Source: Thiohalorhabdus sp. Cl-TMA (lineage in GTDB: Bacteria > Pseudomonadota > Gammaproteobacteria > Thiohalorhabdales > Thiohalorhabdaceae). From it: a DNA stretch of 64,000 bases. Made by a program: the position numbers and the translations under genes. The DNA lies in NCBI RefSeq assembly GCF_041821045.1, contig NZ_JBGUAW010000004.1, positions 186,001 to 250,000 on the forward strand, in the 5' to 3' direction. Positions within the stretch are counted from its first letter, which is position 1, and the number at the start of each line of letters is the position of its first letter. Below, one piece after another: positions 15,017 through 34,518 of this stretch. Under the pieces are notes generated by a model. The model saw only the letters and a program-made list of their open reading frames with translations, searched no databases and was not told where the DNA came from.

Positions 15017-17248
15017 ATGATCCGGGGCAAGCTGAAGGCGCACTACATTCCCATCCTCCTGGGCGCGGCCCTGGTCGTCCTGACCCTCTGGGCCCAGCAG
15101 ACCAATGCTCCGGTGGTCCAGGACCTGCGCAAGCGTCTCGAAGGGGTGGCCTACGACCTGCGCTTCCGCGTCACCCTGCCCTTCTCCACGGAGAAACGGG
15201 AGCCGGTGGCCATCGTGGACATCGACGAGAAGTCCCTGGACGCCGAAGGGCGCTGGCCCTGGCCCCGCGACAAGGTGGCGCAGCTCGTCGACCGCCTGTT
15301 CGAGGCCGGCGCCGTGGTGGTGGGCATGGACATGGTCTTCGCCGAGCCGCAGCGCAATCTGGCCGCCACCACGGCCCGCCACCTGGAGCAGGCGCCCGGC
15401 GTGGACCCCTCGGCGGAGGTGCTCGCCACCCTGTCCGCCGCCGCCCCCGCCCTGGACGACGACCGCGCCCTGGCGCGCGCCCTGGACGGCCACGACGTGG
15501 TGATGGGCTACATGCTGAGCCGCGAGGGCCCCAAGAAGGGCGCCCTGGGACCGCCGCTCCCCACCGCCGAGCTCCAGGGCCCCGAGGGCACCTCCATCCA
15601 GGTCATGGACCACCACCTGGGCAACCTGCCCATGCTGCAGGAGGCCGCCGCCTCCGGCGGCTTCTTCTCCATCTTCCCGGATCGCGACGGCATCCTGCGC
15701 CGCTACCACCTGATCCTGGCCCATAATGACACCCTGTACCCGTCGCTGGCACTGGAGATGGCGCGCCTCTACCTCCTGGCCGAGCGGGTGCGGGTGGTGA
15801 CCGCCCCGGTGGGCGAGGTGCAGACCGTGGACCACCTCGACATGGGCGGCCTGCGCATCCCCACCGGGGGCCACGGCGACGTGCTGGTGCCCTACCGCGG
15901 CGCGGCGGGCAGCTTCCCCTACATCTCCGCCACCGACGTACTCTCCGGGGAGGTGAGCGCCGACAAGCTGGCCGGCAAGCTGGTGCTCATCGGCACCACG
16001 GCGCGCGGCCTCTACGACCTGCGGGCCACCCCGGTACAGAGCGTCTACCCCGGCGTGGAGGTGCACGCCAACGTCCTGCGCGGCCTGCTGAACCGCTCGT
16101 TCCCGCGCAGCCCCGCCTGGGCCGAGGGCGCCAACTTCATCTTCATGCTGGTCATGGGCCTGCTGCTGGCGGTGGCGCTGCCCCTGCTGCGCCCCCTGAC
16201 CCTCTCCCTGCTCACCGGCGCCCTGGGCCTCGCCCTGGTGGCCGGCAACGTGCTGGTGTGGAGCCAGTGGCACTGGGTCATTCCCATCGCCCTGCCGCTG
16301 TTCCTGGTGCTCGGGCTGGGCACCCTGAACATGGCCTACGGCTTCCTGTTCGCCGAGCGCGGCCGGCGGCGCCTCAAGGACATGTTCGGCCAGTACGTGC
16401 CGCCGGAGCTGGTGGACGAGATGACCCAGGACCCGGAAAGCGCCTCCAGCATGGAAGGCGAGCGCCGGGACATGACCGTGCTGTTCGCCGACATCCGCGG
16501 CTTCACGGCCATCTCCGAGCAGCTCTCCGCCGCCGAGCTCAAGGACCTCCTCAACCGCTTCTTCACGCCCATGACGCGGGTGATCTTCGAGCACCGCGGC
16601 ACCATCGACAAGTACGTGGGCGACATGATCATGGCCTTCTGGGGCGCGCCGCTGGAGGACCCCGAGCACGCCCGCAACGGCGTCAAGGCGGCCCTGGCCA
16701 TGCGCGGCGAGGCCGAGCGCCTGCGCTTCCAGTTCCAAAAGGAGGGACTGCCCGACGTGGACATCGGCGTGGGCCTCAACTCCGGCGCCATGAACGTGGG
16801 CAACATGGGCTCCGAGTACCGGCGCAGCTACACCGTACTCGGCGACGCCGTGAACCTGGGCTCCCGCCTGGAGGGGCTTACCAAGCACTACGGCGCGTCG
16901 ATCGTGGTCAGCGACGTGACCCGGGAGGGCCTGGAGGACGAGATCCTGTTCCGGCGCCTGGACCGGGTGCAGGTGAAGGGCCGCGACGAGCCCCTGACCA
17001 TCTTCGAGCCGCTCTGCCCGCGCGAGGAGGCCAGCGCCGAGCTGCTGGCGGAGGTGGACAAGCTCGAGCAGGCACTTTCAGCTTACTGGCGGCGGGAGTG
17101 GGCAGAGGCCGAGGAGCTGTTCACCGAGCTGTCCCGGGCCAAGCCCGACGAGCGCCTCTACGAGCTCTACCTGGAGCGCATCGAAAGCATCGACCCCACC
17201 CGGATGCCGGCGGATTGGGACGGGGTGTACCGGCACGAGAGCAAGTAG
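15017..17248 (+). CDS. CHASE2-domain class III adenylate cyclase
   Basis: 743 aa inner-membrane sensor enzyme making cAMP from ATP. Order: one TM helix (about 10-26), periplasmic CHASE2 domain (about 30-370; VAIVDIDEKSLDAEGRWPWPR is its usual opening), a bundle of hydrophobic helices (about 375-445), then the class III cyclase domain. The metal-binding Asp492 is in FADIRGF and Asp536 in KYVGDMIMAF; LGDAVNLGSRLEGL follows. ATG at 15017 is chosen for GGGGAG upstream and the TM start; TATACT at 14982-14987 may be its -10. It faces the minus-strand operon holding a phosphodiesterase and FecR proteins and is a plausible cAMP source for it. Confidence 0.93.
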   Translation: MIRGKLKAHYIPILLGAALVVLTLWAQQTNAPVVQDLRKRLEGVAYDLRFRVTLPFSTEKREPVAIVDIDEKSLDAEGRWPWPRDKVAQLVDRLFEAGAVVVGMDMVFAEPQRNLAATTARHLEQAPGVDPSAEVLATLSAAAPALDDDRALARALDGHDVVMGYMLSREGPKKGALGPPLPTAELQGPEGTSIQVMDHHLGNLPMLQEAAASGGFFSIFPDRDGILRRYHLILAHNDTLYPSLALEMARLYLLAERVRVVTAPVGEVQTVDHLDMGGLRIPTGGHGDVLVPYRGAAGSFPYISATDVLSGEVSADKLAGKLVLIGTTARGLYDLRATPVQSVYPGVEVHANVLRGLLNRSFPRSPAWAEGANFIFMLVMGLLLAVALPLLRPLTLSLLTGALGLALVAGNVLVWSQWHWVIPIALPLFLVLGLGTLNMAYGFLFAERGRRRLKDMFGQYVPPELVDEMTQDPESASSMEGERRDMTVLFADIRGFTAISEQLSAAELKDLLNRFFTPMTRVIFEHRGTIDKYVGDMIMAFWGAPLEDPEHARNGVKAALAMRGEAERLRFQFQKEGLPDVDIGVGLNSGAMNVGNMGSEYRRSYTVLGDAVNLGSRLEGLTKHYGASIVVSDVTREGLEDEILFRRLDRVQVKGRDEPLTIFEPLCPREEASAELLAEVDKLEQALSAYWRREWAEAEELFTELSRAKPDERLYELYLERIESIDPTRMPADWDGVYRHESK

Positions 17249-17271
17249 GCGTCGAGACGGATTTCCGGGTC

Positions 17272-17295
17272 GTCGCGGCCGGAGGCCGCTCCCAC
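17272..17295 (-). repeat. REP element
   Basis: Inverse copy directly after the cyclase gene; left end of the array. Confidence 0.9.
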
Positions 17296-17433
17296 AACGG
17301 CCCTTCCGGCCCGGGAGCCGGGTCCAGGGGCTTTGTAGCGACCGGCAATGGCGCCTGCGGAAACGACAGCCCGGTTTGGTTTGCCCGGCTGGAGAGCGCT
17401 CCACAGAACGCGCTCCCGGCCCGAAAGGCACTT

Positions 17434-17457
17434 GTAGGAGCGGCCTCCGGCCGCGAC
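17434..17457 (+). repeat. REP element
   Basis: Forward copy inside the left array. Confidence 0.9.
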
Positions 17458-17512
17458 AAAACCTCGGCCCTACGCCCCAAAACCCAGGCCATCCCCATCC
17501 GAAAAGGGCCCC

Positions 17513-17536
17513 GTGGGAGCGGCCTCCGGCCGCGAC
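17513..17536 (+). repeat. REP element
   Basis: Forward copy ending 2 bases from the RAYT stop codon. Confidence 0.9.
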
Positions 17537-17538
17537 TT

Positions 17539-18048
17539 TCAGACCAGCCCGCCAGCCGGGTCGCCCCCGTCCAGCCAGACCGCGTCCCAGTGGGGATAAT
17601 CCCCGATTTTTTCCGCCAGACCGGCACGGAGCGGATTGGCCACGATGTAGCGGGCCAGAGCCCTGAAATCCTCTTCCCGTCGAACCGCCCGGTCATGGAA
17701 GCCCGTCTGCCAGAACCTCCCCCCGCTCGGGGCCATTTCGCACCGGGACTGGATTTTCCGGGCTGAATAGGTCTTCACCGATCGCATCACTTTGGAAAGC
17801 TCCCCGGAGTCCCGCAGGGCCACCAGCCAATGCAGGTGGTCGGGCATGACAACGAAAGCCAGGGAGTCCACCTGGCCGGACTCATGCTGGTGGCGAAGGG
17901 TCCGGATAAGAATGCGGGCGTCGTTAAGGCTGGAAAAGACCGGACGGCGGAGATGGGTGACGGTGGTGAGAATATATACCTGTCCGGGGATGGAGGTTCG
18001 GCCTTTGCAAAGCTGCCTGTATCCTTTCGGGGGATCGTCCGGGGGCAT
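17539..18048 (-). CDS. REP-associated tyrosine transposase (RAYT)
   Basis: 169 aa IS200/IS605-related (TnpA-REP) single-strand transposase thought to spread REP elements. It has the HUH-type metal motif in VVMPDHLHWLVAL, a Tyr candidate in SVKTYSARKIQ, and the family segments GQVYILTTVTHLRRPVF and ARYIVANPLRAGL. ATG at 18048 is chosen for the AAGAGG upstream; a longer frame would read into a REP. It is bracketed by direct copies of a REP array, the usual arrangement for RAYT genes, and is very likely the enzyme matching the REP family of this window. Confidence 0.93.
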   Translation of the reverse strand: MPPDDPPKGYRQLCKGRTSIPGQVYILTTVTHLRRPVFSSLNDARILIRTLRHQHESGQVDSLAFVVMPDHLHWLVALRDSGELSKVMRSVKTYSARKIQSRCEMAPSGGRFWQTGFHDRAVRREEDFRALARYIVANPLRAGLAEKIGDYPHWDAVWLDGGDPAGGLV

Positions 18049-18070
18049 GTGCGGCCTCTTCAGGAACGGC

Positions 18071-18094
18071 GTCTCGGCCGGAGGCCGCTCCCAC
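18071..18094 (-). repeat. REP element
   Basis: Inverse copy, one substitution in the first bases, 22 bases upstream of the RAYT start. Confidence 0.85.
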
Positions 18095-18177
18095 AACGGC
18101 CCTTCCAGCCCGGGAGCCGGGCCCAGGGGCTTTGTAGCGACCGACAACGGCGCCTGAGGGAACGACTGAGCGGTTCA

Positions 18178-18198
18178 CCCGGCCGGAGGCCGCTCCAC
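18178..18198 (-). repeat. Degenerate REP element
   Basis: Shortened inverse copy within the right array. Confidence 0.6.
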
Positions 18199-18227
18199 AG
18201 AACGCGCTCCCGGCCCGAAAGACACTT

Positions 18228-18251
18228 GTAGGAGCGGCCCCTGGCCGCGAC
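18228..18251 (+). repeat. REP element
   Basis: Forward copy with two changes in the loop region. Confidence 0.8.
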
Positions 18252-18306
18252 AAAGCCTCAGCCCCTACGCCCCAAAACCCAGGCATCCCCATCCGAAAAG
18301 GGCCCT

Positions 18307-18330
18307 GTGGGAGCGGCCTCCGGCCGCGAC
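18307..18330 (+). repeat. REP element
   Basis: Forward copy, 26 bases past the HD-GYP stop codon. Confidence 0.9.
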
Positions 18331-18356
18331 ACCGCTGTAGATCCCCCAATTCCCGC

Positions 18357-20006
18357 TCAGGGCTGGTAGCCGGGGATGACGCTTTCGTCCACCTCATCGA
18401 TCTGCTCCGGCTTCAGGAAGCGCTCGGCGTAGTCCATGTAGACCCGCTCGCGGATGAAGAGGTCGAATAGGTCCGGGTCGAAGTGGCTGTCCTCGCACAT
18501 GCGGCCCATGATGGTGAGGGCCTGGGACAGCGGCATGGGGGTCTTGTAGGGGCGGTCGGCGGCGGTGAGGGCCTCGAAGACATCGGCGATGGCCATCATG
18601 CGGGCGCCGTCGGGGTTCTCGTAGCCCACCAGGCCGCGGGGGTAGCCCTGGCCGTCCATGCGCTCGTGGTGGCCGCCGGCGAGGTCCGGCACCCGGCGCA
18701 GGTGGCGGGGATAGGGCAGCGCCTCGAGCATGTCCATGGTCACCCGCATGTGGTCCTTCATGACCTCCCGCTCCTCGGGGGTCAGGGTGCCCTTGGCGAT
18801 GGACAGGTTATGGATCTCGTCCTCGTCCAGCAGCGGCCACTCCGCGCCGTCCGGCCCCCGCCAGCGGCGCTCCGTGCCGATGGCGCGCACCCGCTCCTGC
18901 TCCTCCGGCGGCATGAACTCGCCGCCGACGTTGGCCCGGCGCAGGAAATCCCGCTCCTCGTCCAGGGTGCGCCGCTGTTCCGCCACGGCGGCCTCGGAGG
19001 CCTCCGCCGCCGGCTCCCGCCCCGCCTCGGCCGCCGCCAGGCGCTCGCGCAGGGCGGCGATCTCCGCGTCGCGCTTCAGCACCTCGAAACGGGTGTCCAC
19101 GGCATTGATGCGGTCGTACATGGCGTGGAGCTTGGTCTCCTTGTCCATGACCGGCTCGGGCGTGGTCACCTTGCCGCAGTCGTGCAGCCAGGCGGCGATC
19201 TCCAGCTCGTAGCGCTCCTCCGAAGAGAAGCCGTACTCGGCCAGGCTGCCGTACTCCGCCCGCTGAGCGGCGTCGGCGATCATCATGGTGAGCTCGGGCA
19301 CCCGCTGGCAGTGGCCGCTGGTGTGCTTGGACTTCTCGTCGATGGCCTTGGCGATGAGGCGGATGAAGGACTCGAACAGCTCGCGCTGGGCGTCGATGAG
19401 CTGCTGCTGGGAGAGCGCCACCGCCGCCTGGGAGGCCAGGGACTCGGCGAGGCGCTGGTCCTCGGGGGAGAACTCGGTGACCGCGCCGTCGGCCTCGGAC
19501 TTGGCGTTGAGGAGCTGCAGCACCCCCAGCATCTCGCCCTCGTGGCTCACCAGCGGCAGGGTCAGGAAGGAGCGCGAGCGATAGCCGGTCTGCTCGTCGA
19601 AGGCGCGGGTCCCGGAGAAATCGTAGCCCTCCGCCGTGTAGGCGTCGGCGATGTTCACGGTGTTGCCGGTGAGGGCGGCATAGGCGGCCACGTTGTGGTA
19701 GTTGGGCGCCCCCGCGCCGTCGTGGAGGGGCACCGCGCCCAGGGAAACCGTCTCGCCGCTGGTGCCGCCCATGGCGATGCCCAGGGAATCGTTGCGGACG
19801 ATGCGGAAGTCCAGGGCGTCCCCGGCCTCGTTCTTCAGGTACAGGGTGCCGCCGTCGGCGCCGGTGAGCTCCTTGGCGCCCACCAGGATCTGCTCCAGGA
19901 GCCGCGTGGTGTCCCGCTCGGCGGACAGCGCGGTGCCGATGGCGTTGAGGCGCTCCAGGCGTTCGAGAAGGGCTTCTACCGATCTATTGCTTTGGACTTC
20001 CGTCAT
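18357..20006 (-). CDS. GAF/HD-GYP domain protein, probable c-di-GMP phosphodiesterase
   Basis: 549 aa cytoplasmic protein. GAF sensor domain about 20-200 (ELTGADGGTLYL, RSRSFLTLPLVSHEGEMLGVLQLLN), then the HD module with GHCQRV (231-236), the HD pair in WLHDCGKV (His275-Asp276), and after a ~110-residue coiled insertion the MKDH helix (His419), HHERMDGQGYP (446-456) and AIADVFEALTAADRPYK. Expected to hydrolyse c-di-GMP. The insertion between the two halves of the HD domain is rich in Glu, Arg and Ala. Start ATG at 20006 has AGGAG upstream and lies 15 bases after the stop of the FecR gene, so it is the last gene of the operon. Confidence 0.9.
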   Translation of the reverse strand: MTEVQSNRSVEALLERLERLNAIGTALSAERDTTRLLEQILVGAKELTGADGGTLYLKNEAGDALDFRIVRNDSLGIAMGGTSGETVSLGAVPLHDGAGAPNYHNVAAYAALTGNTVNIADAYTAEGYDFSGTRAFDEQTGYRSRSFLTLPLVSHEGEMLGVLQLLNAKSEADGAVTEFSPEDQRLAESLASQAAVALSQQQLIDAQRELFESFIRLIAKAIDEKSKHTSGHCQRVPELTMMIADAAQRAEYGSLAEYGFSSEERYELEIAAWLHDCGKVTTPEPVMDKETKLHAMYDRINAVDTRFEVLKRDAEIAALRERLAAAEAGREPAAEASEAAVAEQRRTLDEERDFLRRANVGGEFMPPEEQERVRAIGTERRWRGPDGAEWPLLDEDEIHNLSIAKGTLTPEEREVMKDHMRVTMDMLEALPYPRHLRRVPDLAGGHHERMDGQGYPRGLVGYENPDGARMMAIADVFEALTAADRPYKTPMPLSQALTIMGRMCEDSHFDPDLFDLFIRERVYMDYAERFLKPEQIDEVDESVIPGYQP

Positions 20007-20021
20007 GACGGACTCCTGCGC

Positions 20022-21587
20022 TTATCGTTTTAGCAGGCCCGCACCTGTCACAGTTGAACCAAGTTCGATTGCATCTTTCACTGAGAAAATCACCATGCTT
20101 CCCTCGGCAGAGGGACCCACAAATTGTCCATATATAGTACCCTGCGCCCCTGAAGCGCCCATTGTTATTCTAAAATTTGAAGATAGTTCCACAGAAGAGT
20201 ATTCATTTACGATGAAGGAATCGCCGGATGTTCCCTTATGAGGAGAAAGCTCCAAACTTGCCCCGGAAATCTGCCTATCTCCAAAGTTCACATCCATAGA
20301 AAAAGAATCTACCTGCCAAGTGCCAGTGCTACTAGTAGGAGTGGTTCCTCCACCCCAATTATATGTGGCGGTTCCAGTTAGACTTCCCAACTGTTCCGCG
20401 GCGGTAGGATCTGTGACATATGCATAATGAAAGTCGCCTGCAGGCTCACCGGGAACTGTATTCTTCAGACTGAAATCGCCCGCGGCCCATCTCCCCCAAT
20501 AAACTCCAAGATCCAAATTCCTCCCGGTCCCAGCGGGTTCCGCACCCTGATTAGCCTGAAAATCCATTATTACTAGATTTTCGGTTGCGGTTATTGTTTG
20601 GGCTTTCAGTACACCCTCATCATCGATGCTTACAGTAGCCCCAGACTCCGGGTAGCCCATTCCAGAATACCCCGAGTATAAGGTTTCCTGGGCAAGCAAA
20701 TGGGAGGCACCCCAAATTTCAGGTTCTGGTGTAGGATCCGATTCCAGCCCTGTGGGCTGTCCTTCGTTATTGGATTCCTCCGAAGCCTCGAAGTCCTCCT
20801 CCGGCACCTCGAATACCTGCATGGAGTCGTCCTGGTCCGCCAGGGCATTGAGGGCGCTGCCCAGGTTTTCCCCGGACGCGTCTTCCCCGCTCTCCCCAGC
20901 GTCCCCTTCCCCGTCACCGCCTTCACCGTCCTCGCCGCCGCCCCGGCCGCCGGTGGCGGCCACCAGGTCGGTAGGGGGCTGGAGGATGCCGCGCGGCAGG
21001 TCGCCCCGGGAGGCCACGTGGAAGTAGCGGTCGCCGCCGAAGGTCTTGCTGCCGGCGTCGTTGGAGACGGCGATGCGGCCCTGGGTCACGCCGCCGTAGA
21101 GGCCGCCGGGCACGTCGCCACAGGCGCCGTCGCAGAGGCGCAGGAGGTACTGGGTGCCGCGCACGCCGATGCTGGCCACGGGGGTCTCCACCTCGTACTC
21201 CTGCCCCTCGCCGCCGCCCACGGCGCCGGTGATGGTGCGCATGCCGCCCTTGAGCAGGCCCATGACGGCGCTGTCCTCCTCGTCGCCGGCCTCCTCGGAG
21301 CGGTAGCGCTTCACGGCGAAGGCGGAGTCGGGCTTGATGTCCACCAGGGCGCCGTCCTTGAAGCGCACCTGGGCCCGACCGCCCTCGCCGGTGACAACCC
21401 GCTCGCCCTCGCGGATCTCGGAGCGCCGTCGCAGCGGGCGCCGCTCGCCGTCGGGGCCCACGGCCACCACCTCGCCCACCTGGGTAATGACCCGTCCCAC
21501 CGTCTCGGCGGCCACCGCCGGGCCCATACCGGACAGGTACACGGCCACACCGAGGACATACAGCCCGATTGCCCGAACCCCTGTCAT
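20022..21587 (-). CDS. Secreted FecR-domain protein with C-terminal TbpB-like beta domain
   Basis: 521 aa. Signal peptide ends near residue 27 (GPAVAAETVG). FecR domain about 60-190 (RVVTGEGGRAQVRFKDGALV, TPVASIGVRGTQYLLR). A Gly/Glu-rich linker (about 205-290) leads to a C-terminal half with alternating beta pattern: YWGRWAAGDF, GSLTGTATYNWGGG, SMDVNFGDRQISGASLEL, GTIYGQFVGPSAEG. The last part resembles the barrel of TbpB-type and Slam-exported proteins. No lipobox. Bases 20022 to about 20800 are clearly poorer in GC than the FecR half and neighbours, suggesting the C-terminal part was acquired separately. It lies 43 bases after the other FecR gene and two genes after a Slam-like gene, which may export it (inference). 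Confidence 0.75.
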   Translation of the reverse strand: MTGVRAIGLYVLGVAVYLSGMGPAVAAETVGRVITQVGEVVAVGPDGERRPLRRRSEIREGERVVTGEGGRAQVRFKDGALVDIKPDSAFAVKRYRSEEAGDEEDSAVMGLLKGGMRTITGAVGGGEGQEYEVETPVASIGVRGTQYLLRLCDGACGDVPGGLYGGVTQGRIAVSNDAGSKTFGGDRYFHVASRGDLPRGILQPPTDLVAATGGRGGGEDGEGGDGEGDAGESGEDASGENLGSALNALADQDDSMQVFEVPEEDFEASEESNNEGQPTGLESDPTPEPEIWGASHLLAQETLYSGYSGMGYPESGATVSIDDEGVLKAQTITATENLVIMDFQANQGAEPAGTGRNLDLGVYWGRWAAGDFSLKNTVPGEPAGDFHYAYVTDPTAAEQLGSLTGTATYNWGGGTTPTSSTGTWQVDSFSMDVNFGDRQISGASLELSPHKGTSGDSFIVNEYSSVELSSNFRITMGASGAQGTIYGQFVGPSAEGSMVIFSVKDAIELGSTVTGAGLLKR

Positions 21588-21630
21588 TGGCTTCTCCTAT
21601 CGGCCGCCCGCGGCCGGTTCCCGATTCCGG

Positions 21631-22845
21631 TTATTTGTTGTGGCCCTTGCCCGGGCTGTCCTTGTCGCCCCCGTTGCCGCCGCCGTTGGACTGCGGCGGC
21701 AGGGGCTTCGGATTGCCCGAGGCGCGCACCCGCTCGTTGGGCCGGGGCGGGCCGTTGTCCACCGCCGGGGCATTACCGGGGCCCTTCTCCAGGGCGTCGA
21801 TGGGCCGGGCCTTGCGTCCCCGGTCTCTGCCCTTCGCCTCGCCCTTGCCCGGGGGGCCGGCGGCGTCCGGCCGCCGGCGCCACTCCTCGGGGGACTCGGC
21901 CTTGCCTTGGCCGCGCAGCTCCCCGCGCCATCCCTTCAGGAGCGGGCGCGGCGGCTCCATGAGCTGTTCGGGCGCCACGGTGGGCGCCGCAACGTGGAAG
22001 TAGGTGCCCGCCTCCACCAGGGCCGCGCCGGCCTGGTTGCGGACCTCGATGCGGCCCTGCTGCACGCCGCCGTGCAGGCCCGCCTCGCCCACCGCCAGGG
22101 CGTAGACGGTGCCGCGGATGCCGATGGAGGCCGCCGGGGTCTCCATGCGGTAGCCGTCCCGGTTGGTGTCGGAGACCGTGCCGGTGATGGTGCGCAGGCC
22201 GCCCTCCAGCAGCTCCAGCACCGCCTCGGGCTCCTCGGCCTTGCCGGGCTCGGCGGTGTAGCGCTTCACCCGCAGACGGGAGCCGGGGCGCAGGGCCACC
22301 AGGCCGCGGTCGGCGAAGCGCACCTGGGCCCGGCCCTCGGCACCGGTGACCAGGGTCTCGCCCTGGTGGATCGGGGAGCGGCGCTCCAGGGCCCGCTCGG
22401 GGCCCTCCGGGACCACGGCGGTCACGGGGCCCACGGCGCTCAGCACCCGGCCCACCACCTCGGCGGCGTGCGCGCCCGGGGCGGCCAGCAGCAGGGCCGC
22501 CAGGGGGAGGAGCCTCCGGGCCGGGGAACGGCGTCGCGGCCGGAGGCCGCTCCCACGGGAGCCGCCACGGGCCGGGGCGGCTTCTCGGTCAGAACTCTCC
22601 CGCCGCGCTGGCTGGACCGGGGAGGATTCGGAATCGACGGTGGCCCCTTCCAGGAGTCGCGGCCGGAGGCCGCTTCCACAATCCCGGCTCCCACCAGCGA
22701 GGCCCCCCGTGGGAGCGGCCTCCGGCCGCGACAGCGCCGAATCGGGCCAGGCGGGGGCGGTGCCACGCGCCGCTCGGGCGGGCCTGTTTCCCCGGCGGGG
22801 CGCGCCGGTAAGGCGGAATGGATTTTCGGGCGGCACTGCGATCAT
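21631..22845 (-). CDS. FecR-domain protein with REP-derived N-terminal extension
   Basis: 404-codon frame. Residues 111-127 form a signal-like stretch (RRLLPLAALLLAAPGAHA), followed by a FecR domain (about 150-265; GETLVTGAEGRAQVRFADRG, TPAASIGIRGTVYAL) and a Gly/Pro/Lys-rich tail. Three REPs lie inside the first 105 codons and are read as SGLRPR or SRPEAAPT peptides. No ATG, GTG or TTG lies in frame between codon 4 and the hydrophobic stretch, so the only canonical start is ATG 22845 with a strong GGAGGGAGGG site, 12 bases after the upstream stop. Either the long leader is made and hides the signal peptide, or a non-standard start is used. Possibly a damaged gene. Confidence 0.7.
   Translation of the reverse strand: MIAVPPENPFRLTGAPRRGNRPARAARGTAPAWPDSALSRPEAAPTGGLAGGSRDCGSGLRPRLLEGATVDSESSPVQPARRESSDREAAPARGGSRGSGLRPRRRSPARRLLPLAALLLAAPGAHAAEVVGRVLSAVGPVTAVVPEGPERALERRSPIHQGETLVTGAEGRAQVRFADRGLVALRPGSRLRVKRYTAEPGKAEEPEAVLELLEGGLRTITGTVSDTNRDGYRMETPAASIGIRGTVYALAVGEAGLHGGVQQGRIEVRNQAGAALVEAGTYFHVAAPTVAPEQLMEPPRPLLKGWRGELRGQGKAESPEEWRRRPDAAGPPGKGEAKGRDRGRKARPIDALEKGPGNAPAVDNGPPRPNERVRASGNPKPLPPQSNGGGNGGDKDSPGKGHNK
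22533..22556 (-). repeat. REP element inside the fecR frame
   Basis: Inverse copy covering codons 97-105, immediately before the signal-like segment. Confidence 0.9.
22656..22679 (-). repeat. REP element inside the fecR frame
   Basis: Inverse copy with one substitution, covering codons 56-64. Confidence 0.88.
22709..22732 (+). repeat. REP element inside the fecR frame
   Basis: Forward copy covering codons 38-46; inverted pair with 22656-22679. Confidence 0.9.
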
Positions 22846-22857
22846 GGGCCCTCCCTC

Positions 22858-24183
22858 CTAGAAGTAGTCGTACCGGACCTGCACCCAGAGCTGGGTGCGC
22901 TGGTACTCGTAGAGGGCGATGTTGGCGTCGTTGCGGCTGTGGCGCAGACGGGGGCCGGCGCTCCAGTGCCGGTCGTACCGCCAGTCCAGGGCCACGTCGG
23001 CCTGGTAGTAGGTTTCCTTACGGGTCTCGCCGAACAGAGCATGCTCCTCCCCGTATCCGCTATAACGCGCCTGGCCGTTGACACGCAATGTCCAATCGGG
23101 ATCGAGGACGAAGCGCAGTCCCGCTTGCAGGCCGTAGAGGGTCCGCTCGGCGATGGCCTCGGCGGCGTCGGAATTGTCGTCGGCCAATTCCCGCCCGGCG
23201 TACAGGGAAGCGGACACCGCCGGCTGGTAGGCGCCGAGGAACAGGTGGGAGCCGCCGACACCGACGGTCAGCATCTTGGAGTCGCGGATGGACTGTCCGG
23301 TGTACTCGATGCGGTTGACCCGGGCGAAGCCGGTTCCCGCCGTGGTGTCGGTCAAGGTGTAGCGCAGGTCACCGCCCAGGCCGTAGCTGTCGCGGTAGGG
23401 GCCGGCGTCCAGGAAGAAGCGCTGGGCGCGCGCCGTTAGGCGCAGCCGGGTGTCGATGCCGCGCCACTCCCAGCCGGCGCGGCCGGCCAGCAGCCCGGTG
23501 TCGAAGTCGCTCTCGTCGGGATGAAAGCGGCCGCGGACGTCGATGCCGCCGTAGACGCCGGTGTCGGGGCTCAGCGGATGGCGGACGGTGCCGCCGGCGG
23601 CGGAGCGCAGGAAGAGGTCCGCCTGCTCCTGGCTGGAATCGCTCAGCTCGAGCTGCAGGGCGCCGTCGAAGATGGCGACGCTGTCGGCGTCGGTGGCGCT
23701 GTTGACGTTGGTGTCGTAGCCGGCGCCCATCTCGGCGTAGGCGGTGAGGACGGTCTCGTAGCGGTCGGCGCGGCGGCGGATGGCCTCCAGGAAGCGCTCC
23801 ACGGTGGCCACCACCGCCTGGGGCGGGTCATGGGCGAGGACGGTGCGGAATTCCTCCCGGGCCCGCCGGTCCTCGCCGAGCAGGAAGTAGCCGCGCGCCA
23901 GCTCCAGGCGCGCCCGGTCCAGGCCCGGCTTCCGCATGAGGACGCGCTCCAGGGCGAAGATGCCCTCGGCCACGTGGCCGGTGTCGATGGCCGCGGTGCC
24001 GTAGTAGAAGTCGAAGCCGGACCGCCCCTCGTACTCGGCGCGGTGCTCCAGGGCCCACTGGTAGGCGGCCTCCATCCGCCCCTGCTGGACCATCTCCCGC
24101 AGGGGCGCCAGCTCCGACTGCGCGTGGACCGCCGAGGAAGCCCCCAGAAGTCCCGCCAAAATCCAGTTCCGCCATCCCCGCAT
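22858..24183 (-). CDS. Slam/DUF560-like outer-membrane protein (TPR plus beta barrel)
   Basis: 441 aa. Signal peptide ends near residue 20 (ASSAVHAQSE). An N-terminal helical repeat region with TPR character (about 24-135; VAEGIFALERVLMRKPGLDRAR, LARGYFLLGEDRRAREEF) is followed by a beta barrel that opens with GAGYDTNVNSATD and ends in aromatic RYDYF, as expected of an outer-membrane barrel. This architecture matches Slam (surface lipoprotein assembly modifier, SlpAM/DUF560) proteins, which move TbpB-like cargo across the outer membrane. ATG at 24183 is chosen for GGGAG upstream and the signal peptide. Second gene of the operon, followed 12 bases later by fecR. A TPR-porin of unknown role is the alternative. 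Confidence 0.75.
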   Translation of the reverse strand: MRGWRNWILAGLLGASSAVHAQSELAPLREMVQQGRMEAAYQWALEHRAEYEGRSGFDFYYGTAAIDTGHVAEGIFALERVLMRKPGLDRARLELARGYFLLGEDRRAREEFRTVLAHDPPQAVVATVERFLEAIRRRADRYETVLTAYAEMGAGYDTNVNSATDADSVAIFDGALQLELSDSSQEQADLFLRSAAGGTVRHPLSPDTGVYGGIDVRGRFHPDESDFDTGLLAGRAGWEWRGIDTRLRLTARAQRFFLDAGPYRDSYGLGGDLRYTLTDTTAGTGFARVNRIEYTGQSIRDSKMLTVGVGGSHLFLGAYQPAVSASLYAGRELADDNSDAAEAIAERTLYGLQAGLRFVLDPDWTLRVNGQARYSGYGEEHALFGETRKETYYQADVALDWRYDRHWSAGPRLRHSRNDANIALYEYQRTQLWVQVRYDYF

Positions 24184-24284
24184 AGGCACGCTCCCGCCCG
24201 TTGGCACAGCCCGACCCGGGGCCGCGCCATGGCGCCCCGGAGCATAACGAAATCCCCCCTTGCACTGACAGTCCGACTCCGGCG

Positions 24285-25052
24285 CTATCCCTCCGGAAGC
24301 ACCTTCCCCGACTCCAGGGGACGCACGTCGCGATCGCCGATGGCCCGTTGGCACTCAGCGAAAATGCGCTCCTCCTCGCCCGGCATGCGATGTGTGATCC
24401 AGATCACAGGCCGGTGGCGAAGCCGGCGCAGGTCCTCGGCCAGCAGGTCCGGCGTGTAGTGGCCGGCTTGCTGGGCCAGCTCCGTGCTCTCGTTGGGGAA
24501 GGCGGCCTCCACCAGCAGGTGGTCCAGGCGCGGCCCGCTGTTGAGGGCGTCCCAGAGGACCTCGTTGGTGGAGCAGTCGCCGCTGAAGGCCAGCACGGAA
24601 GCGCCGTCGCTCAGGCGGAAGCCCGCGGCCGGCACCACGTGGCGGACGGGCAGCATCTCCACGCGCCGGCCCTCCAGCTCCCGGACCTCGCCGGGCTCCA
24701 TGGGCTCGAAGCGCACCACGGGCCGCTCCGGGGTGGGCAGGACGGTGAAGTCCGGCCAGATCACCCAGTTGAATATGTACTCGTGCAGGGCCTGCAGGGT
24801 GGCCTCGCGGGCGTGGACCACCAGCGGCTCGCGGATGCGCTCGAAGATGGTGTCGATAAGGAGCGGCAGGAAGCCGATGTGATCGAGATGGGAATGGGAC
24901 AGAAAGATATGGCGGATCCCGGCCATGGAATCGAGGTCCAGCTCCCCCACGCCGGAACCCGCGTCCACCAGGATGTCGTCGTCCAACAGAAAGGATGTGG
25001 TATGCGCGCCGTGCTGCACCCCGCCGCTGCAACCGAGCACCCGCAGCTGCAT
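24285..25052 (-). CDS. Metallo-beta-lactamase-fold protein, class II-like cyclic nucleotide phosphodiesterase
   Basis: 255 aa soluble protein. The metal site HSHLDH lies in LSHSHLDHIGFLPLLID (about residues 52-69), with further ligands likely in VRHVVPAAGF, AFSGDCST and WITHRM. The N-terminal VLGCSGGVQHGAHTTSFLLDD and overall layout fit the class II 3',5'-cyclic nucleotide phosphodiesterases (CpdP type) better than hydrolases of the glyoxalase group, but specificity is unproven. ATG at 25052 has GGGGAG 6 bases upstream. First gene of the minus-strand operon; with the CHASE2 cyclase at 15.0-17.2 kb it could set local cAMP. Confidence 0.75.
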   Translation of the reverse strand: MQLRVLGCSGGVQHGAHTTSFLLDDDILVDAGSGVGELDLDSMAGIRHIFLSHSHLDHIGFLPLLIDTIFERIREPLVVHAREATLQALHEYIFNWVIWPDFTVLPTPERPVVRFEPMEPGEVRELEGRRVEMLPVRHVVPAAGFRLSDGASVLAFSGDCSTNEVLWDALNSGPRLDHLLVEAAFPNESTELAQQAGHYTPDLLAEDLRRLRHRPVIWITHRMPGEEERIFAECQRAIGDRDVRPLESGKVLPEG

Positions 25053-25242
25053 ACGGTTCTCCCCGCCCTTGTCGGCCCCCTCTTTCCCGCGACAGGAACC
25101 ATACCCGGATGCCGCCATGGGGTCTACCCCGCAACGGATCAGGGCACTCCCCAAAAGGACGTGTGGCGGCTACGATAGGCGGGGGCTCCCGGGTTTCGGA
25201 CCCCCGCCCCCAGTTTCCCTGCGGACATTACCGAGGACGTCC

Positions 25243-27531
25243 ATGGCTGCCTCCACCCAGAAGGAATCCGCGCCGGCCCAGGCGCCCGCCAACAAGCAGG
25301 AGTACGAGCGGCGGCTGAACGCCATCTTCCGGCAGATCCACGACGCCAGCAGCTTCGACGAGGCCCTGCCGCACTTGCAGGAGGAGATGCTGGCCCTGCT
25401 GCGGGCGGAGCGCATGACGGTCTACCAGCGCGGCCGGCACAACCGCGAGATCGTCTCGCGCTTCAAGACCGGGGACGAGGTGCAGGAGATCCGCGTTCCG
25501 GTGGGACCCAGCTCGGTGGCCGGCTACGTGGCCCTCACCAAGAGCCCGCTGCTCATCAGCGACGTCTACGACGCCGACGAGCTCAAGGCCGTCCACGAGG
25601 AGCTGGGCTTCGACGCCAGCGTGGACGCGCGCACCGGCTTCCGTACCCGCTCCATGGTGGTGGTGCCCATCATCCACGGCGACGTGCTGCTCGGCGTGCT
25701 GCAGATCCTCAACCGCCAGGGCGGCGGCAGCTTCAACAAGACCGACCTGGGCCGCTGTCAGGACCTGGCGCGCATCATCGGCCAGAAGTACCGCTACGAT
25801 TTCCGCGGCACCCGCGGGCCCTTCGACCACCTGGTGAGCCGCCGCCACATCACCCAGGAGCGCCTGCAGGAGATCCAGCAGGAGGCGGCCAACCGCAAGA
25901 GCCCGGTGGTGCAGCTGCTGCTGGAGGAGGAAGAGCTGCCGCCGGCGGTGGTGGGGGAATCCCTGGAGCACTACTACCAGGTGCCCTACATGCCCTACGA
26001 CCCGGACATCGAGCCCCCCGAGGAGCTGCTCGGCCGGTTCAAGCGGAGCTACCTGCGCAACAACCTCATCGCGCCGGTGGCGGTGGAGGGCAGCACCGTC
26101 ACGCTGCTCCTGGACAACCCCAACGACACCAACCGCATCCTGGAGCTGCAGTCCTTCCTCTCCGGCTACAACTTCGACATCCGCGTCAGCCTCCCCGACG
26201 AGATCCTCCGCTACCTGGGCGCCAAGGTGGAGACCAAGGGGCCCGACCACAACCTGGAGGCTCTGGTCGGCCGACTCGCCGAAGGGGACGTGGAGGACGA
26301 CCTGGACGAGGCGGGCGACGAGGGGCTGGTGGACGAGAACGAGCCCACCGTGGTCCAGGTGGTGAACCGGCTCATCGTCGACGCCCACCAGCTCGGCGCC
26401 AGCGACATCCACATCGAGCCGGGCAAGGGCAACGACCCGGCGGCGGTGCGCATGCGCGTGGACGGGGTCTGCCGCACGGTGCTCAACATCCCGGCCAGCC
26501 ACATCCAAGCGGTGCTGGCCCGCATCAAGATCATGTCGCGCCTGGACATCGCCGAGCGGCGCAAGCCGCAGGACGGCAAGATCTCCGTGAAGCTCCAGGG
26601 CCAGCCCCTGGAGCTGCGTGTGGCCACCGTGCCCACCGTGAACGGCGAGAGCGCCGTGATGCGGCTGCTGGCCTCGGGCGGCGCCCTGCCCTTCGACAAG
26701 CTGAACTTCCAGCCCTGGAACCACGAGCACATCCAGGAGCTGATCTCCCATCCGCACGGGCTGTTCCTGGTGGTGGGCCCCACCGGCTCCGGCAAGACCA
26801 CCACGCTCCACGGCGTGCTCGGCGAGCTGAACACGCCCGAGCGCAAGATCTGGACCGCCGAGGACCCGGTGGAGATCACGCAGAAGGGCCTGCAGCAGGT
26901 GCAGGTGCAGCCCAAGATCGGCTTCGACTTCGCGGCCGCCCTGCGCTCCTTCCTGCGCGCCGACCCCGACGTCATCCTCATCGGCGAGGTGCGCGACAAA
27001 GAGACCGCGGAGAGCGCGGTGGAGGCCTCGCTCACCGGCCACATGGTGTTCTCCACCCTGCACACCAACTCCGCCCCGGAGACCATCACGCGGCTCCTGG
27101 ACCTGGAGCTGGACCCCATGAACTTCGCCGACTCCCTGCTCGGGGTGCTGGCCCAGCGGCTCATGCGCACCCTGTGCGGCGAGTGCAAGGAGCCCTACAC
27201 GCCGGACGAGAAGGAGTACGCCAATCTCTCCCACGCCTACGGCGACGAGGCCTTCGAGGAGCTGGGTCTGAAGCGCGAGGAGATCACGCTCTACCGCGCG
27301 GTGGGCTGCTCCAAGTGCGGCAACACCGGCTACAAGGGCCGGACCGGCATCCACGAGCTGCTGGTGAGCTCGCCCGACATGCAGAAGACCATCGCCCGCT
27401 CCGCCCCGGTGGCGGAGATCCGCGACCTGGCCATGCAGCAGGGCATGCGGACCCTCATGCAGGACGGCATCGCCAAGGTGCTGGCCGGTCAGGCCGACTT
27501 CACGCAGCTCCGCAAGGTCACCGCCGAATAG
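25243..27531 (+). CDS. GAF-domain GspE/PilB-type secretion ATPase
   Basis: 762 aa. GAF domain about 20-185 (GFRTRSMVVVPIIHGDVLLGVLQILN), a T2SSE_N/MshEN-like domain about 200-330 and the GspE ATPase 365-760. Walker A is GPTGSGKT (512-519), Asp box DPDVILIGEVRDKET, and the zinc motif has Cys645/648 and Cys689/692. Such ATPases power type II secretion or type IV pilus extension; the N-terminal GAF fusion is unusual for GspE and suggests ligand control. No other T2SS or pilus gene is in the window, so its machine is elsewhere. Start ATG 25243 with GAGGA upstream. Divergent from the phosphodiesterase across 190 bases. Confidence 0.92.
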   Translation: MAASTQKESAPAQAPANKQEYERRLNAIFRQIHDASSFDEALPHLQEEMLALLRAERMTVYQRGRHNREIVSRFKTGDEVQEIRVPVGPSSVAGYVALTKSPLLISDVYDADELKAVHEELGFDASVDARTGFRTRSMVVVPIIHGDVLLGVLQILNRQGGGSFNKTDLGRCQDLARIIGQKYRYDFRGTRGPFDHLVSRRHITQERLQEIQQEAANRKSPVVQLLLEEEELPPAVVGESLEHYYQVPYMPYDPDIEPPEELLGRFKRSYLRNNLIAPVAVEGSTVTLLLDNPNDTNRILELQSFLSGYNFDIRVSLPDEILRYLGAKVETKGPDHNLEALVGRLAEGDVEDDLDEAGDEGLVDENEPTVVQVVNRLIVDAHQLGASDIHIEPGKGNDPAAVRMRVDGVCRTVLNIPASHIQAVLARIKIMSRLDIAERRKPQDGKISVKLQGQPLELRVATVPTVNGESAVMRLLASGGALPFDKLNFQPWNHEHIQELISHPHGLFLVVGPTGSGKTTTLHGVLGELNTPERKIWTAEDPVEITQKGLQQVQVQPKIGFDFAAALRSFLRADPDVILIGEVRDKETAESAVEASLTGHMVFSTLHTNSAPETITRLLDLELDPMNFADSLLGVLAQRLMRTLCGECKEPYTPDEKEYANLSHAYGDEAFEELGLKREEITLYRAVGCSKCGNTGYKGRTGIHELLVSSPDMQKTIARSAPVAEIRDLAMQQGMRTLMQDGIAKVLAGQADFTQLRKVTAE

Positions 27532-30036: not shown

Positions 30037-30666
30037 TCAGTCGAAGGCGACGCTGCCCGCGGCCCGCTGGAGGCGCTCGGGGGCGATAAGCGCCGGCCGC
30101 TCCGGGGCCCGGTCCGGACCGCGCACGGTGGTCATCTCCTTGGGCCGGTTCAGCCGCACGGTACCCGCCCCGTTGCGGATGAACACCCCGGACCCCTCCA
30201 GCAGGATCACGTCCAGGGCCTCGGAGAAGTAGAAGCCGCCCCAGAAGTCCGTGCCCCGCACGCCCACCGTGGCGACCCGGGTCTTCATCAGGATCTGGCC
30301 GCCCTTGTCCGTGATGGCCCCGGTAACCGCCCGGAACACGCCCTCCAGCAGGCGGAAGACCCCTTCGGGCGGCTTTTCCCCGTCCCGCCCGGTACGGTAC
30401 CGCTCGACCCGGAATACGGTATCCGCCCCGAGCGTCAGGACGGTGCCGTCGCGCATCCGGATCTTGGCGCGCGCCCCGGGGCCGGTGCGGAGGGCGGCGC
30501 CCCGGTTCACGGCGTCCCCCCGGGAGAGGGCTCGCGCGCCGTCCTCCCCGTCCAGGGTGACGGTACCCTGGGTGCGCAGGACCACGCCGTCGGGCTCTGC
30601 CTGGGCCCAGGCGGGAACCAGCATCAGCAGGAGCAGCGCGGCGCGCCACAGCATGCCGGGCTTCAT
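30037..30666 (-). CDS. Periplasmic FecR-domain protein
   Basis: 209 aa. Signal peptide ends near residue 23 (LLLLMLVPAWAQAEPDG). The rest is one FecR domain: GDAVNRGAALRTGPGARAKIRM, TVFRVERYRTG, RVATVGVRGTDFWGG. No anti-sigma transmembrane region is present, so it is a secreted FecR-fold protein rather than a sigma regulator. ATG at 30666 has AAGGAAG upstream. Last gene of a four-gene envelope operon (COG3014, LpoB, LPP20, FecR) with its own terminator. It is the third FecR protein in 11 kb. Confidence 0.85.
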   Translation of the reverse strand: MKPGMLWRAALLLLMLVPAWAQAEPDGVVLRTQGTVTLDGEDGARALSRGDAVNRGAALRTGPGARAKIRMRDGTVLTLGADTVFRVERYRTGRDGEKPPEGVFRLLEGVFRAVTGAITDKGGQILMKTRVATVGVRGTDFWGGFYFSEALDVILLEGSGVFIRNGAGTVRLNRPKEMTTVRGPDRAPERPALIAPERLQRAAGSVAFD

Positions 30667-30706
30667 GGGCTCTTCCTTTGGGGGCGGCGCGATTGCACGG
30701 GGCGGA

Positions 30707-31774
30707 CTAGCCGCGTCCGGCGGCCCGCTCGAAGCTCTCCAGCAGGCTGGAGCCCAGCTTCTTGCCGAGGCCCTCGGCGAGCTTGCCCACGGCACGGTCG
30801 GAGGCCACGCCGGCATCCACGGAGCCGGCCTTGACCCGCTCCTGGAACTCGTCGATGACGTTTCCGCCGCGGTCCAGAACAGTGACGTTGCCGTCGGCGA
30901 AGACGAAGGTGCGATCGTCCCGGTTCACCGTTCGCAGGCCAGCCTCGTAGCGCAGGGTAAGGTCGCCGCTGCCGCCTTCCCGCACCTGGACCCCCTCGTT
31001 GCTGAGCGCCTTGCGCAGCGTGGAATCCATCTTGCGGGTGCTCTCGCCCCGCGGCTGCAGCACCACCACCAGGGAGTCCAGCAGGCCCGCGATGCGGCTT
31101 TCCAGGTCCCGGAACTCCGCCGGCAGCCGGTGCCCGGGGTCCATGGTGGCCACAAGCTGCAGCTTGCGCAGGAGCTCCTTACGCTCCGCCAGCAGGGGCA
31201 GCGCCGGCATGAGCGCCTTGAGCCGGTCCAGGCGCGCGCCGCCGCTATCGCGCTCGGCCACCTCGGCGATGCGGGCGTCCAGGTCCTCGATGCGGCTGGC
31301 CAGGTTCAGCTCCGCCTGGCTGCGGTTGAGCTTCACCAGGGCGTAGGCCATGCCCTCGGACCGGTTTACGTGGGTCTCGGCCACCTTGATGTTGGTGAGC
31401 TCCGTCTCGCGGACCTTGCTGCGGGCGGTATCCATCACCGAGCGGGTGATGCTGCTGTCGCCGTCGGCGGTGGTGCGGCTGGCCTTGGTGACCGTCTCCC
31501 CGGACACGGTCACCTCCAGGCGCTTGAGCAGCTCGCGCCGGGCCTGGTCCTGGGCCTGCGTCAGGGCGGAGGCGGGGTCCGCGTAGACGCGCGCCGAGCC
31601 CACGCCGTAGGCGAAGCCGTCGCCGCTCGGCGGGGAGGTCACCCACTGCGGAAGCTCCGAGGATCCCCCGGAAGAGGCGGAGCCGCCCACATCGGGACCA
31701 CCGCCGAAACAGCCCGCCAGGACCAGGGCCGACAGGCCCGCCGCCAGCGTGCCCAGAAACGTTCTGACCTGCAT
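30707..31774 (-). CDS. LPP20-family lipoprotein
   Basis: 355 aa envelope lipoprotein. Lipobox LAGC ends the signal peptide at about residue 22. The LPP20-like region follows (LPQWVTSPPSGDGFAYGVGSA, ALTQAQDQARRELLKRLEV), and the C-terminal half has beta-rich segments (FVFADGNVTVLDRGGNVIDEF). ATG at 31774 is chosen for AAGGGGA 7 bases upstream. It sits between lpoB and fecR in the operon; in other gammaproteobacteria similar lipoproteins accompany lpoB, so a role in envelope or peptidoglycan assembly is likely but untested. Confidence 0.8.
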   Translation of the reverse strand: MQVRTFLGTLAAGLSALVLAGCFGGGPDVGGSASSGGSSELPQWVTSPPSGDGFAYGVGSARVYADPASALTQAQDQARRELLKRLEVTVSGETVTKASRTTADGDSSITRSVMDTARSKVRETELTNIKVAETHVNRSEGMAYALVKLNRSQAELNLASRIEDLDARIAEVAERDSGGARLDRLKALMPALPLLAERKELLRKLQLVATMDPGHRLPAEFRDLESRIAGLLDSLVVVLQPRGESTRKMDSTLRKALSNEGVQVREGGSGDLTLRYEAGLRTVNRDDRTFVFADGNVTVLDRGGNVIDEFQERVKAGSVDAGVASDRAVGKLAEGLGKKLGSSLLESFERAAGRG

Positions 31775-31912
31775 GCGAATCCCCTTTTCCGGGCTCCCGC
31801 CCGGATTGCCGGCCGGCGGCGTCATTCCGCGCCGGCCTCGCCGAACCAAAACGGTTGGAGTCTCCTCGGACCCCAACCGCCTGTTTTCAGCCGATTCCGA
31901 TTCCACCCGGCG

Positions 31913-32530
31913 CTAGAAGAAGCCACCCTTCTCGGCGACCTTCTTGATCTTCTTCTGGCCGTACCAGACCTCCTGGGTGGTGGTCATGTCCACCAGATTG
32001 AGGTCCACCTGGTAGAAGGTCACCCGGGTGCCGTCGGCCTGCTGCACCGTGGAGTTGATGCTGCCGGCCAGGGCGAAGTCGGCGCCGGTCTCGGCGCCCA
32101 TCTCGGCGCGGGTGTCCTCGGAGGCGTAGATGTCCTGCTCCTTGCGCTCCTCGCGGACCTCCTCCCGGGCGGCGCCGCCGGACACGAACTCCACCTGGCC
32201 GTTGCGCAGCATGGCGCGCTTCAGGTCGTTGATGAAGGTGTCCGTGGGAATGTGCTCATGGGACTTGTTGCGGACGGTCTTGATGATCACCCGCGGCATC
32301 CGGTCGTGCTTCTGGTTCCACTTCTCCAGCCAGGGGAAGCTGACCATGTCCTTGATCATCTGCTTGGCCACCAGCTTGGAGTCGGTGGAGTTCCACTTGT
32401 CGGTGACGTCGATCTGCTTGTTGGCGCCCACCCGGGAGACCTGGGTGCCGCCGCAGGCGGTCAGGCCAGTGGCCACCACGGCGGCCATCAGGAGGCCGGC
32501 GGCGGTTTTATAGGCGTGCTCTTTGTTCAT
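31913..32530 (-). CDS. lpoB: Penicillin-binding protein activator LpoB family lipoprotein
   Basis: 205 aa outer-membrane lipoprotein with lipobox LTAC at about residue 26. The LpoB fold signature starts at VDVTDKWN-like VTDKWNSTDSKLVAKQMI, with the later ADFALAGSINSTVQQADG and YQVDLNLVDMTTTQEVWYGQ strands. In E. coli LpoB crosses the periplasm to stimulate PBP1b. GC-rich ATG start at 32530; the gene lies 20 bases after the COG3014 gene. Confidence 0.9.
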   Translation of the reverse strand: MNKEHAYKTAAGLLMAAVVATGLTACGGTQVSRVGANKQIDVTDKWNSTDSKLVAKQMIKDMVSFPWLEKWNQKHDRMPRVIIKTVRNKSHEHIPTDTFINDLKRAMLRNGQVEFVSGGAAREEVREERKEQDIYASEDTRAEMGAETGADFALAGSINSTVQQADGTRVTFYQVDLNLVDMTTTQEVWYGQKKIKKVAEKGGFF

Positions 32531-32550
32531 CTGAGAAATCCCCTCTTGGA

Positions 32551-34293: not shown

Positions 34294-34518
34294 GGTGTTC
34301 CCCGTGTTCAGACCGATGTGCCCCCTTTTTGGCCGGTGGCCCCGCCTGTCTGTCCCGAAATTTCGCAATTCCCCGGGCCAGGGCGGGATTGTCCGGCATC
34401 CCCGGCAAGAATACTGACAATTCTCTTATGGATGCGCAATAGCTTCCCGTGGCGCCGAGGACGCGGGAGTGACGCACCGCACACGGAACGGGAGCGGAAG
34501 GGCTTGCGGGGAAGTAGC

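What the first reader, a model, noticed from the sequence alone, without database searches (positions are those of the whole stretch)
15017..27531. A possible undescribed cyclic-nucleotide and FecR/Slam surface system
Seen: a five-gene minus-strand operon codes for a class II-like phosphodiesterase, a TPR/beta-barrel protein of Slam (DUF560) type, two FecR-domain proteins and a GAF/HD-GYP protein. A GAF/GspE-type ATPase is divergent from it, and a CHASE2 adenylate cyclase lies just beyond the RAYT gene. Known: Slam proteins export TbpB-like cargo to the surface, and FecR-domain proteins and CHASE2 cyclases are, as far as I recall, often neighbours. Inferred: one FecR protein with a TbpB-like end is the Slam cargo, and cAMP/c-di-GMP turnover sets its display. 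I know of no described system joining these parts.
Basis: partly seen in the sequence, partly recalled or inferred. Interest (0 to 1): 0.75.

Follow-up and report, generated by a model that had tools for sequence, protein, structure and literature searches.

The report
Secreted FecR protein wired to cAMP
These genes look like a dedicated outer-membrane exporter (type XI, 'Slam' kind) that ships out a protein whose inner end is a signalling domain, with a membrane enzyme that makes cAMP beside it; the same set recurs in many distant bacteria, so cells may sense what happens at their surface through a protein they export.

Summary
The window encodes a T11SS/Slam-type outer-membrane protein (TPR plus a modelled 14-strand barrel), two FecR proteins, a class-II-like (MBL-fold) phosphodiesterase, a GAF-HD-GYP protein, a divergent GAF-GspE ATPase and a CHASE2 adenylate cyclase. 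One FecR protein ends in a barrel whose predicted fold matches the known Slam cargo (TbpB, NHBA, fHbp, hemophilin), while its N-terminus matches the FecR/PupR cell-surface-signalling domain. It recurs: 72 of 74 related exporters, a well-supported clade, have a FecR gene directly downstream, mostly with the barrel; 20 other T11SS exporters have none. At least 21 of 73 exporters in a class survey have a CHASE2 gene within 10 kb (chance about 1). The seven parts recur, in another order, in Neptuniibacter; subsets occur in Sulfuricella, Amphritea and a Paracoccus plasmid. I conclude that a dedicated T11SS clade exports a non-lipidated FecR cargo, coupled to CHASE2-cAMP signalling. The direction of signalling (surface to cyclase, or cyclase to display) is not shown. 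Prior art: FecR-CHASE2 pairs, the NsrA-CyaK pathway, and a 2022 note of CHASE2 cyclase/PDE/FecR/TPR clusters in Campylobacterota. None linked these to T11SS in the papers I could search.

The parts
15017..17248 (+). CHASE2-domain class III adenylate cyclase; likely periplasmic sensor and cAMP output
   Evidence: PF05226 E 6e-66, PF00211 E 2e-22; two metal Asp, Lys/Thr purine-specifying pair, Asn and Arg read by eye
18357..20006 (-). GAF-HD-GYP, likely c-di-GMP phosphodiesterase
   Evidence: GAF, HD_5; HD and HHExxDGxGYP motifs by eye; recurs in Neptuniibacter and Amphritea cassettes
20022..21587 (-). FecR-T11SS cargo: Sec signal, FecR/CSS domain (29-203), disordered linker, C-terminal TbpB/NHBA-like barrel (about 342-521)
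   Evidence: PF04773, NF041636 E 1.8e-4, AF2 model, Foldseek
21631..22845 (-). second FecR-domain protein without barrel, Pro/Gly/Lys-rich tail; N-terminal start uncertain
   Evidence: PF04773 39 bits; barrel HMM negative
22858..24183 (-). T11SS/Slam-type OMP: TPR plus 14-strand barrel, in the FecR-associated clade
   Evidence: PF04575 37 bits, AF2 pLDDT 95, tree
24285..25052 (-). MBL-fold class-II-like cyclic nucleotide phosphodiesterase
   Evidence: PF02112 E 8e-11, PF12706; HSHLDH motif
25243..27531 (+). GAF-(degenerate MshEN)-GspE/PilB-like ATPase, divergent from the operon
   Evidence: T2SSE E 1e-121; scores below PilB and GspE equivalog cut-offs; recurs in Neptuniibacter and Sulfuricella cassettes

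Best explanation
A cell-surface signalling and secretion module. (1) The FecR-barrel protein enters the periplasm by Sec and is not lipidated. (2) Its C-terminal TbpB/NHBA-like barrel is recognised by the dedicated T11SS OMP encoded in the same operon and carried to or through the outer membrane. (3) Its N-terminal FecR/CSS domain, joined by a long disordered linker, is the periplasmic signalling part and engages the periplasmic CHASE2 domain of the adenylate cyclase, so cAMP reports export state or surface binding. (4) The PDE ends the signal; the GAF-HD-GYP protein and GAF-GspE-like ATPase are effectors linking cAMP to c-di-GMP and to a pilus or secretion motor. Shown computationally: domains, folds, exporter clade, FecR adjacency, CHASE2 linkage. 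Inferred: step 2 as transport (about 0.85), step 3 contact (about 0.55) and its direction (about 0.45), step 4 (about 0.4).
For: Cargo fold: Foldseek top hits of the 521-aa model are TbpB C-lobe, NHBA, fHbp and hemophilin for the C-terminus and PupR CSS domain/FecR-type anti-sigma for the N-terminus. A barrel HMM seeded only from FecR-cargo finds HphA/HpuA- and fHbp-type cargo in control loci (E 2.5e-6, 7e-5). Exporter: PF04575 in 58 of 70 members, 14 strands plus TPR. Dedicated pair: FecR gene directly downstream in 72 of 74 loci, 0 of 20 other T11SS loci; the FecR-associated exporters form one clade, support 99/95. Non-lipidated: 0 of 75 with a lipobox. CHASE2: within 10 kb of at least 21 of 73 exporters in 20 genomes, chance about 1.2% each, in several orders and strands. 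Accessory genes within 10 kb only where CHASE2 is: HD-GYP 10/14, PDE 11/14, GspE 4/14 versus 0/27. Seven-part cassette in Neptuniibacter. Paracoccus pAMI5: TPR barrel, FecR plus TbpB_B_D-like end, CHASE2 cyclase in one direction.
Against: No transport, binding or cAMP was measured. Most exporters in the survey have no CHASE2 gene within 10 kb, so the cyclase link is not obligatory in cis. Sequence matches of the barrel to curated cargo families are weak (NF041636 in 5 of 48, below cut-off in the window protein; no Pfam hit); fold is the main evidence. HD-GYP, PDE and GspE are linked in about three lineages only; many counted loci are Amphritea/Neptuniibacter relatives. GAF cyclic-nucleotide binding is only suggested by partial motifs, and MshEN is degenerate or missing.
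Confidence: 0.72

Rival explanations
1. One reading: cyclic nucleotides control display. cAMP and c-di-GMP turnover regulates expression or export of the FecR-barrel protein.
For: HD-GYP and PDE genes sit in or next to the operon.
Against: The exporter needs no known cytoplasmic input; FecR and CHASE2 are both predicted periplasmic; FecR-CHASE2 pairs exist without an exporter (L054; plasmid loci).
Confidence: 0.2
2. The barrel is a receptor, not an exporter (NsrA- or FecA-like): the FecR-barrel protein stays in the periplasm, docks on the OMP and relays ligand binding to CHASE2.
For: NsrA, a beta-barrel OM protein, acts upstream of the CHASE2 cyclase CyaK in S. meliloti (PMC7529298; PMC13001267).
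Against: 14-strand plus TPR topology and PF04575 match T11SS; the partner carries a barrel like known T11SS cargo.
Confidence: 0.2
3. Two independent units that are often neighbours: an adhesin-like T11SS pair and a generic CHASE2 cyclase.
For: CHASE2 is common (202 of 369 genomes) and most exporters lack it within 10 kb.
Against: At least 21 of 73 exporters have CHASE2 within 10 kb against about 1 expected, in about 17 families and several gene orders.
Confidence: 0.1

Closest known systems
Type XI secretion system (T11SS/TXISS; Slam, HrpB-HrpC, NilB-NilC)
   Same: DUF560/SlipAM OMP with TPR and 14-strand barrel, adjacent cargo with C-terminal barrel, SPI cargo as in hemophilin
   Different: separate clade; cargo carries an N-terminal FecR/CSS domain; linked to CHASE2 cyclases rather than TonB or haem uptake
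Cell-surface signalling (FecA-FecR-FecI, PupB-PupR)
   Same: periplasmic FecR/PupR CSS domain proposed to relay an outer-membrane event
   Different: FecR domain has no TM or anti-sigma part, no sigma factor or TonB receptor among the genes examined; output would be cAMP
NsrA-CyaK/CyaD (Sinorhizobium meliloti)
   Same: OM beta-barrel needed for activation of a CHASE2 adenylate cyclase
   Different: NsrA is one large receptor protein; no T11SS exporter or FecR-barrel cargo reported in the papers read
CHASE2 cyclase/PDE/FecR/TPR gene clusters in Campylobacterota (PMC9239204)
   Same: same gene kinds clustered, suggested to form one pathway
   Different: not identified as T11SS or cargo; whether that TPR protein is an exporter was not tested here
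FecR-LysM and CHASE2 histidine kinase BiofilmReg operon (PMC5192318)
   Same: FecR-CHASE2 pairing
   Different: histidine kinase output, no exporter

Membership tests
T11SS/Slam OMP | PF04575 SlipAM domain above cut-off | tested here: met
   37 bits, cut-off 22; 58 of 70 clade members match at E 0.001
T11SS/Slam OMP | N-terminal TPR plus 14-strand barrel | tested here: met
   AF2 model, pLDDT 95
T11SS/Slam OMP | exports a cargo protein | not testable with these tools
   needs secretion assay
T11SS cargo | C-terminal eight-strand TbpB/hemophilin-like barrel | tested here: met
   Foldseek to TbpB C-lobe, NHBA, fHbp, hemophilin; sequence-family support weak
T11SS cargo (surface lipoprotein type) | lipobox signal peptide | tested here: not met
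   0 of 75; resembles soluble TXISS-1B cargo instead
FecR cell-surface-signalling regulator | FecR/CSS periplasmic domain | tested here: met
   PF04773 in 48 of 48; PupR CSSD fold match
FecR cell-surface-signalling regulator | anti-sigma domain with TM, plus FecI sigma factor and TonB receptor | tested here: not met
   Sec signal then FecR domain only; no such domains among genes scanned; flanks not exhaustively annotated
CHASE2 adenylate cyclase | CHASE2 plus intact class III catalytic residues | tested here: met
LapA retention-module adhesin | retention module above NF033682 cut-off | tested here: not met
   35.7 bits, cut-off 50; weak match in 45 of 48

The most novel reading that the evidence does not exclude
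A third kind of cell-surface signalling, in which a type XI secretion system replaces the TonB receptor, an exported FecR-domain protein is both surface effector and periplasmic messenger, and a CHASE2 cyclase replaces the anti-sigma/sigma pair, so that cAMP reports secretion or surface contact.
Probability: 0.42. Interest if true: 0.87.

Novelty: new variant of a known kind. Interest (0 to 1): 0.72.

Why it matters
Published T11SS work characterises one of ten network clusters by experiment; the remit of most environmental T11SS is unknown. This gives one clade a specific cargo class (FecR-barrel, up to four barrels) and a signalling partner. It also offers a candidate answer to two open questions: what CHASE2 domains sense, and what the many FecR proteins without a sigma factor do. 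Both become testable in non-pathogenic isolates.

Tried and rejected
phmmer against PDB sequences gave only chance hits for barrel and cargo. Pfam finds no TbpB domain in 48 FecR-cargo proteins, so sequence alone would have missed the barrel; fold showed it. MshEN as a c-di-GMP sensor was not accepted: degenerate here, not found in the Neptuniibacter homologue. LapA-type retention was considered; the retention match is below cut-off. Plasmid search with the Neptuniibacter exporter gave one ordinary T11SS locus. The NsrA paper itself is not held.

Full report
Observation. The genes are as described. On the minus strand, in order: MBL-fold class-II-like PDE, T11SS/Slam-type OMP, FecR protein, FecR protein with C-terminal barrel, GAF-HD-GYP; gaps are about 98-101, 12, 43 and 15 bp. 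A GAF-GspE-like ATPase diverges from the PDE. A RAYT gene separates the operon from a CHASE2 adenylate cyclase whose catalytic residues are intact.

Exporter. PF04575 matches above cut-off. The AF2 model (70 sequences, pLDDT 95) shows N-terminal TPR helices and 14 barrel strands, the topology the T11SS literature gives for DUF560 (PMC8406197). No Slam structure appeared among the 50 best PDB matches; the best were BcsC and PelB, with OmpG-type barrels further down.

Cargo. The 521-aa FecR protein has a Sec-type signal, FecR domain, disordered linker and C-terminal barrel (mean pLDDT 75, folded parts mostly about 80-95). Foldseek matches the C-terminus to TbpB C-lobe, NHBA, fHbp and hemophilin and the N-terminus to the PupR CSS domain and a FecR-type anti-sigma. 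By sequence the link is weaker: NF041636 in 5 of 48. But an HMM seeded only from FecR-cargo barrels recovers the cargo next to ordinary T11SS genes, which Pfam names FHBP_C and HphA/HpuA. None of 75 FecR-barrel proteins has a lipobox; 16 have two to four barrels.

Recurrence. The search used the exporter alone, so neighbours were not selected. Of 304 loci found, 80 were fetched. Where at least 600 bp lie downstream, 72 of 74 have a FecR gene within 400 bp on the same strand; of those with at least 2500 bp, 53 of 62 have the barrel too. With about six FecR genes per genome chance is negligible. Twenty lower-scoring T11SS loci have no FecR gene, and the two sets separate on a tree with 99/95 support. 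Some loci are duplicates or close relatives, so counts are not independent events.

Cyclase link. In 369 genomes of the class, 62 carry the exporter; at least 21 of 73 exporter loci have CHASE2 within 10 kb, in 20 genomes, against about 1.2% expected per locus. Genome co-occurrence is 55/62 versus 147/307 (Fisher 1e-9, not corrected for phylogeny). Gene orders differ: cyclase upstream, downstream, or convergent. In Paracoccus aminophilus pAMI5 the TPR barrel, FecR protein with TbpB_B_D-like end (22.1 bits, cut-off 26) and CHASE2 cyclase lie in a row.

Accessory genes. In Neptuniibacter the seven parts recur with the same Pfam domains in the order FecR, exporter, FecR-barrel, PDE, GAF-GspE, cyclase, GAF-HD-GYP. 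The Amphritea loci show no GspE gene and no separate FecR; Sulfuricella has cyclase, PDE, exporter, cargo and GspE. Within 10 kb, HD-GYP, PDE and GspE occur only where CHASE2 does (10/14, 11/14, 4/14 versus 0/27), but most of these are two related genera.

Mechanism. Placing a CSS-type domain on an exported protein, next to a cyclase with a periplasmic sensor, suggests that CHASE2 reads the FecR domain. FecR-CHASE2 gene pairs without exporter exist (this genome, L054; S. meliloti and Ruegeria), and published FecR-CHASE2 operons exist (PMC5192318). NsrA-CyaK shows that an OM barrel can act upstream of a CHASE2 cyclase (PMC7529298). A weak match to the LapA retention module hints that the FecR domain might hold the cargo at the outer membrane; this is speculation. 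The opposite flow, cyclic nucleotides controlling display, is not excluded.

Novelty. PMC9239204 reported CHASE2 cyclase, PDE, FecR and TPR clusters in Campylobacterota. No held paper has both DUF560 and FecR, and the main T11SS papers do not use the word FecR. The link between them, the cargo assignment and the distinct exporter clade appear new within the open literature searched; subscription papers were not covered.

Noticed in passing
window 30037-34368 (-): A third FecR gene lies in a second minus-strand cluster with LPP20-, LpoB- and TPR-domain genes.
   Followed up: no
L054:7376-10257 (same genome, contig C10): A FecR and CHASE2-cyclase gene pair overlap by 4 bp, without an exporter.
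   Followed up: partly
L067:11324-18271; L072; L078; L096: Giant FecR proteins with three or four tandem cargo barrels, up to 2315 aa, adhesin-like.
   Followed up: no
L195, L196, L198, L200, L202, L203, L206: A different T11SS clade without FecR has an HD-GYP gene (some with dCache and PAS) divergent and close by, suggesting another T11SS linked to c-di-GMP.
   Followed up: partly
L102:2783-5332: A CHASE2-protein kinase fusion lies beside the Sulfuricella cassette.
   Followed up: no
alignment A4, barrel region: Consensus of the FecR-cargo barrel holds a CxxGC motif that the window protein lacks.
   Followed up: no
window 17539-18147 (-): RAYT (Y1_Tnp) gene between the operon and the cyclase; not searched for in the other cassettes.
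   Followed up: no
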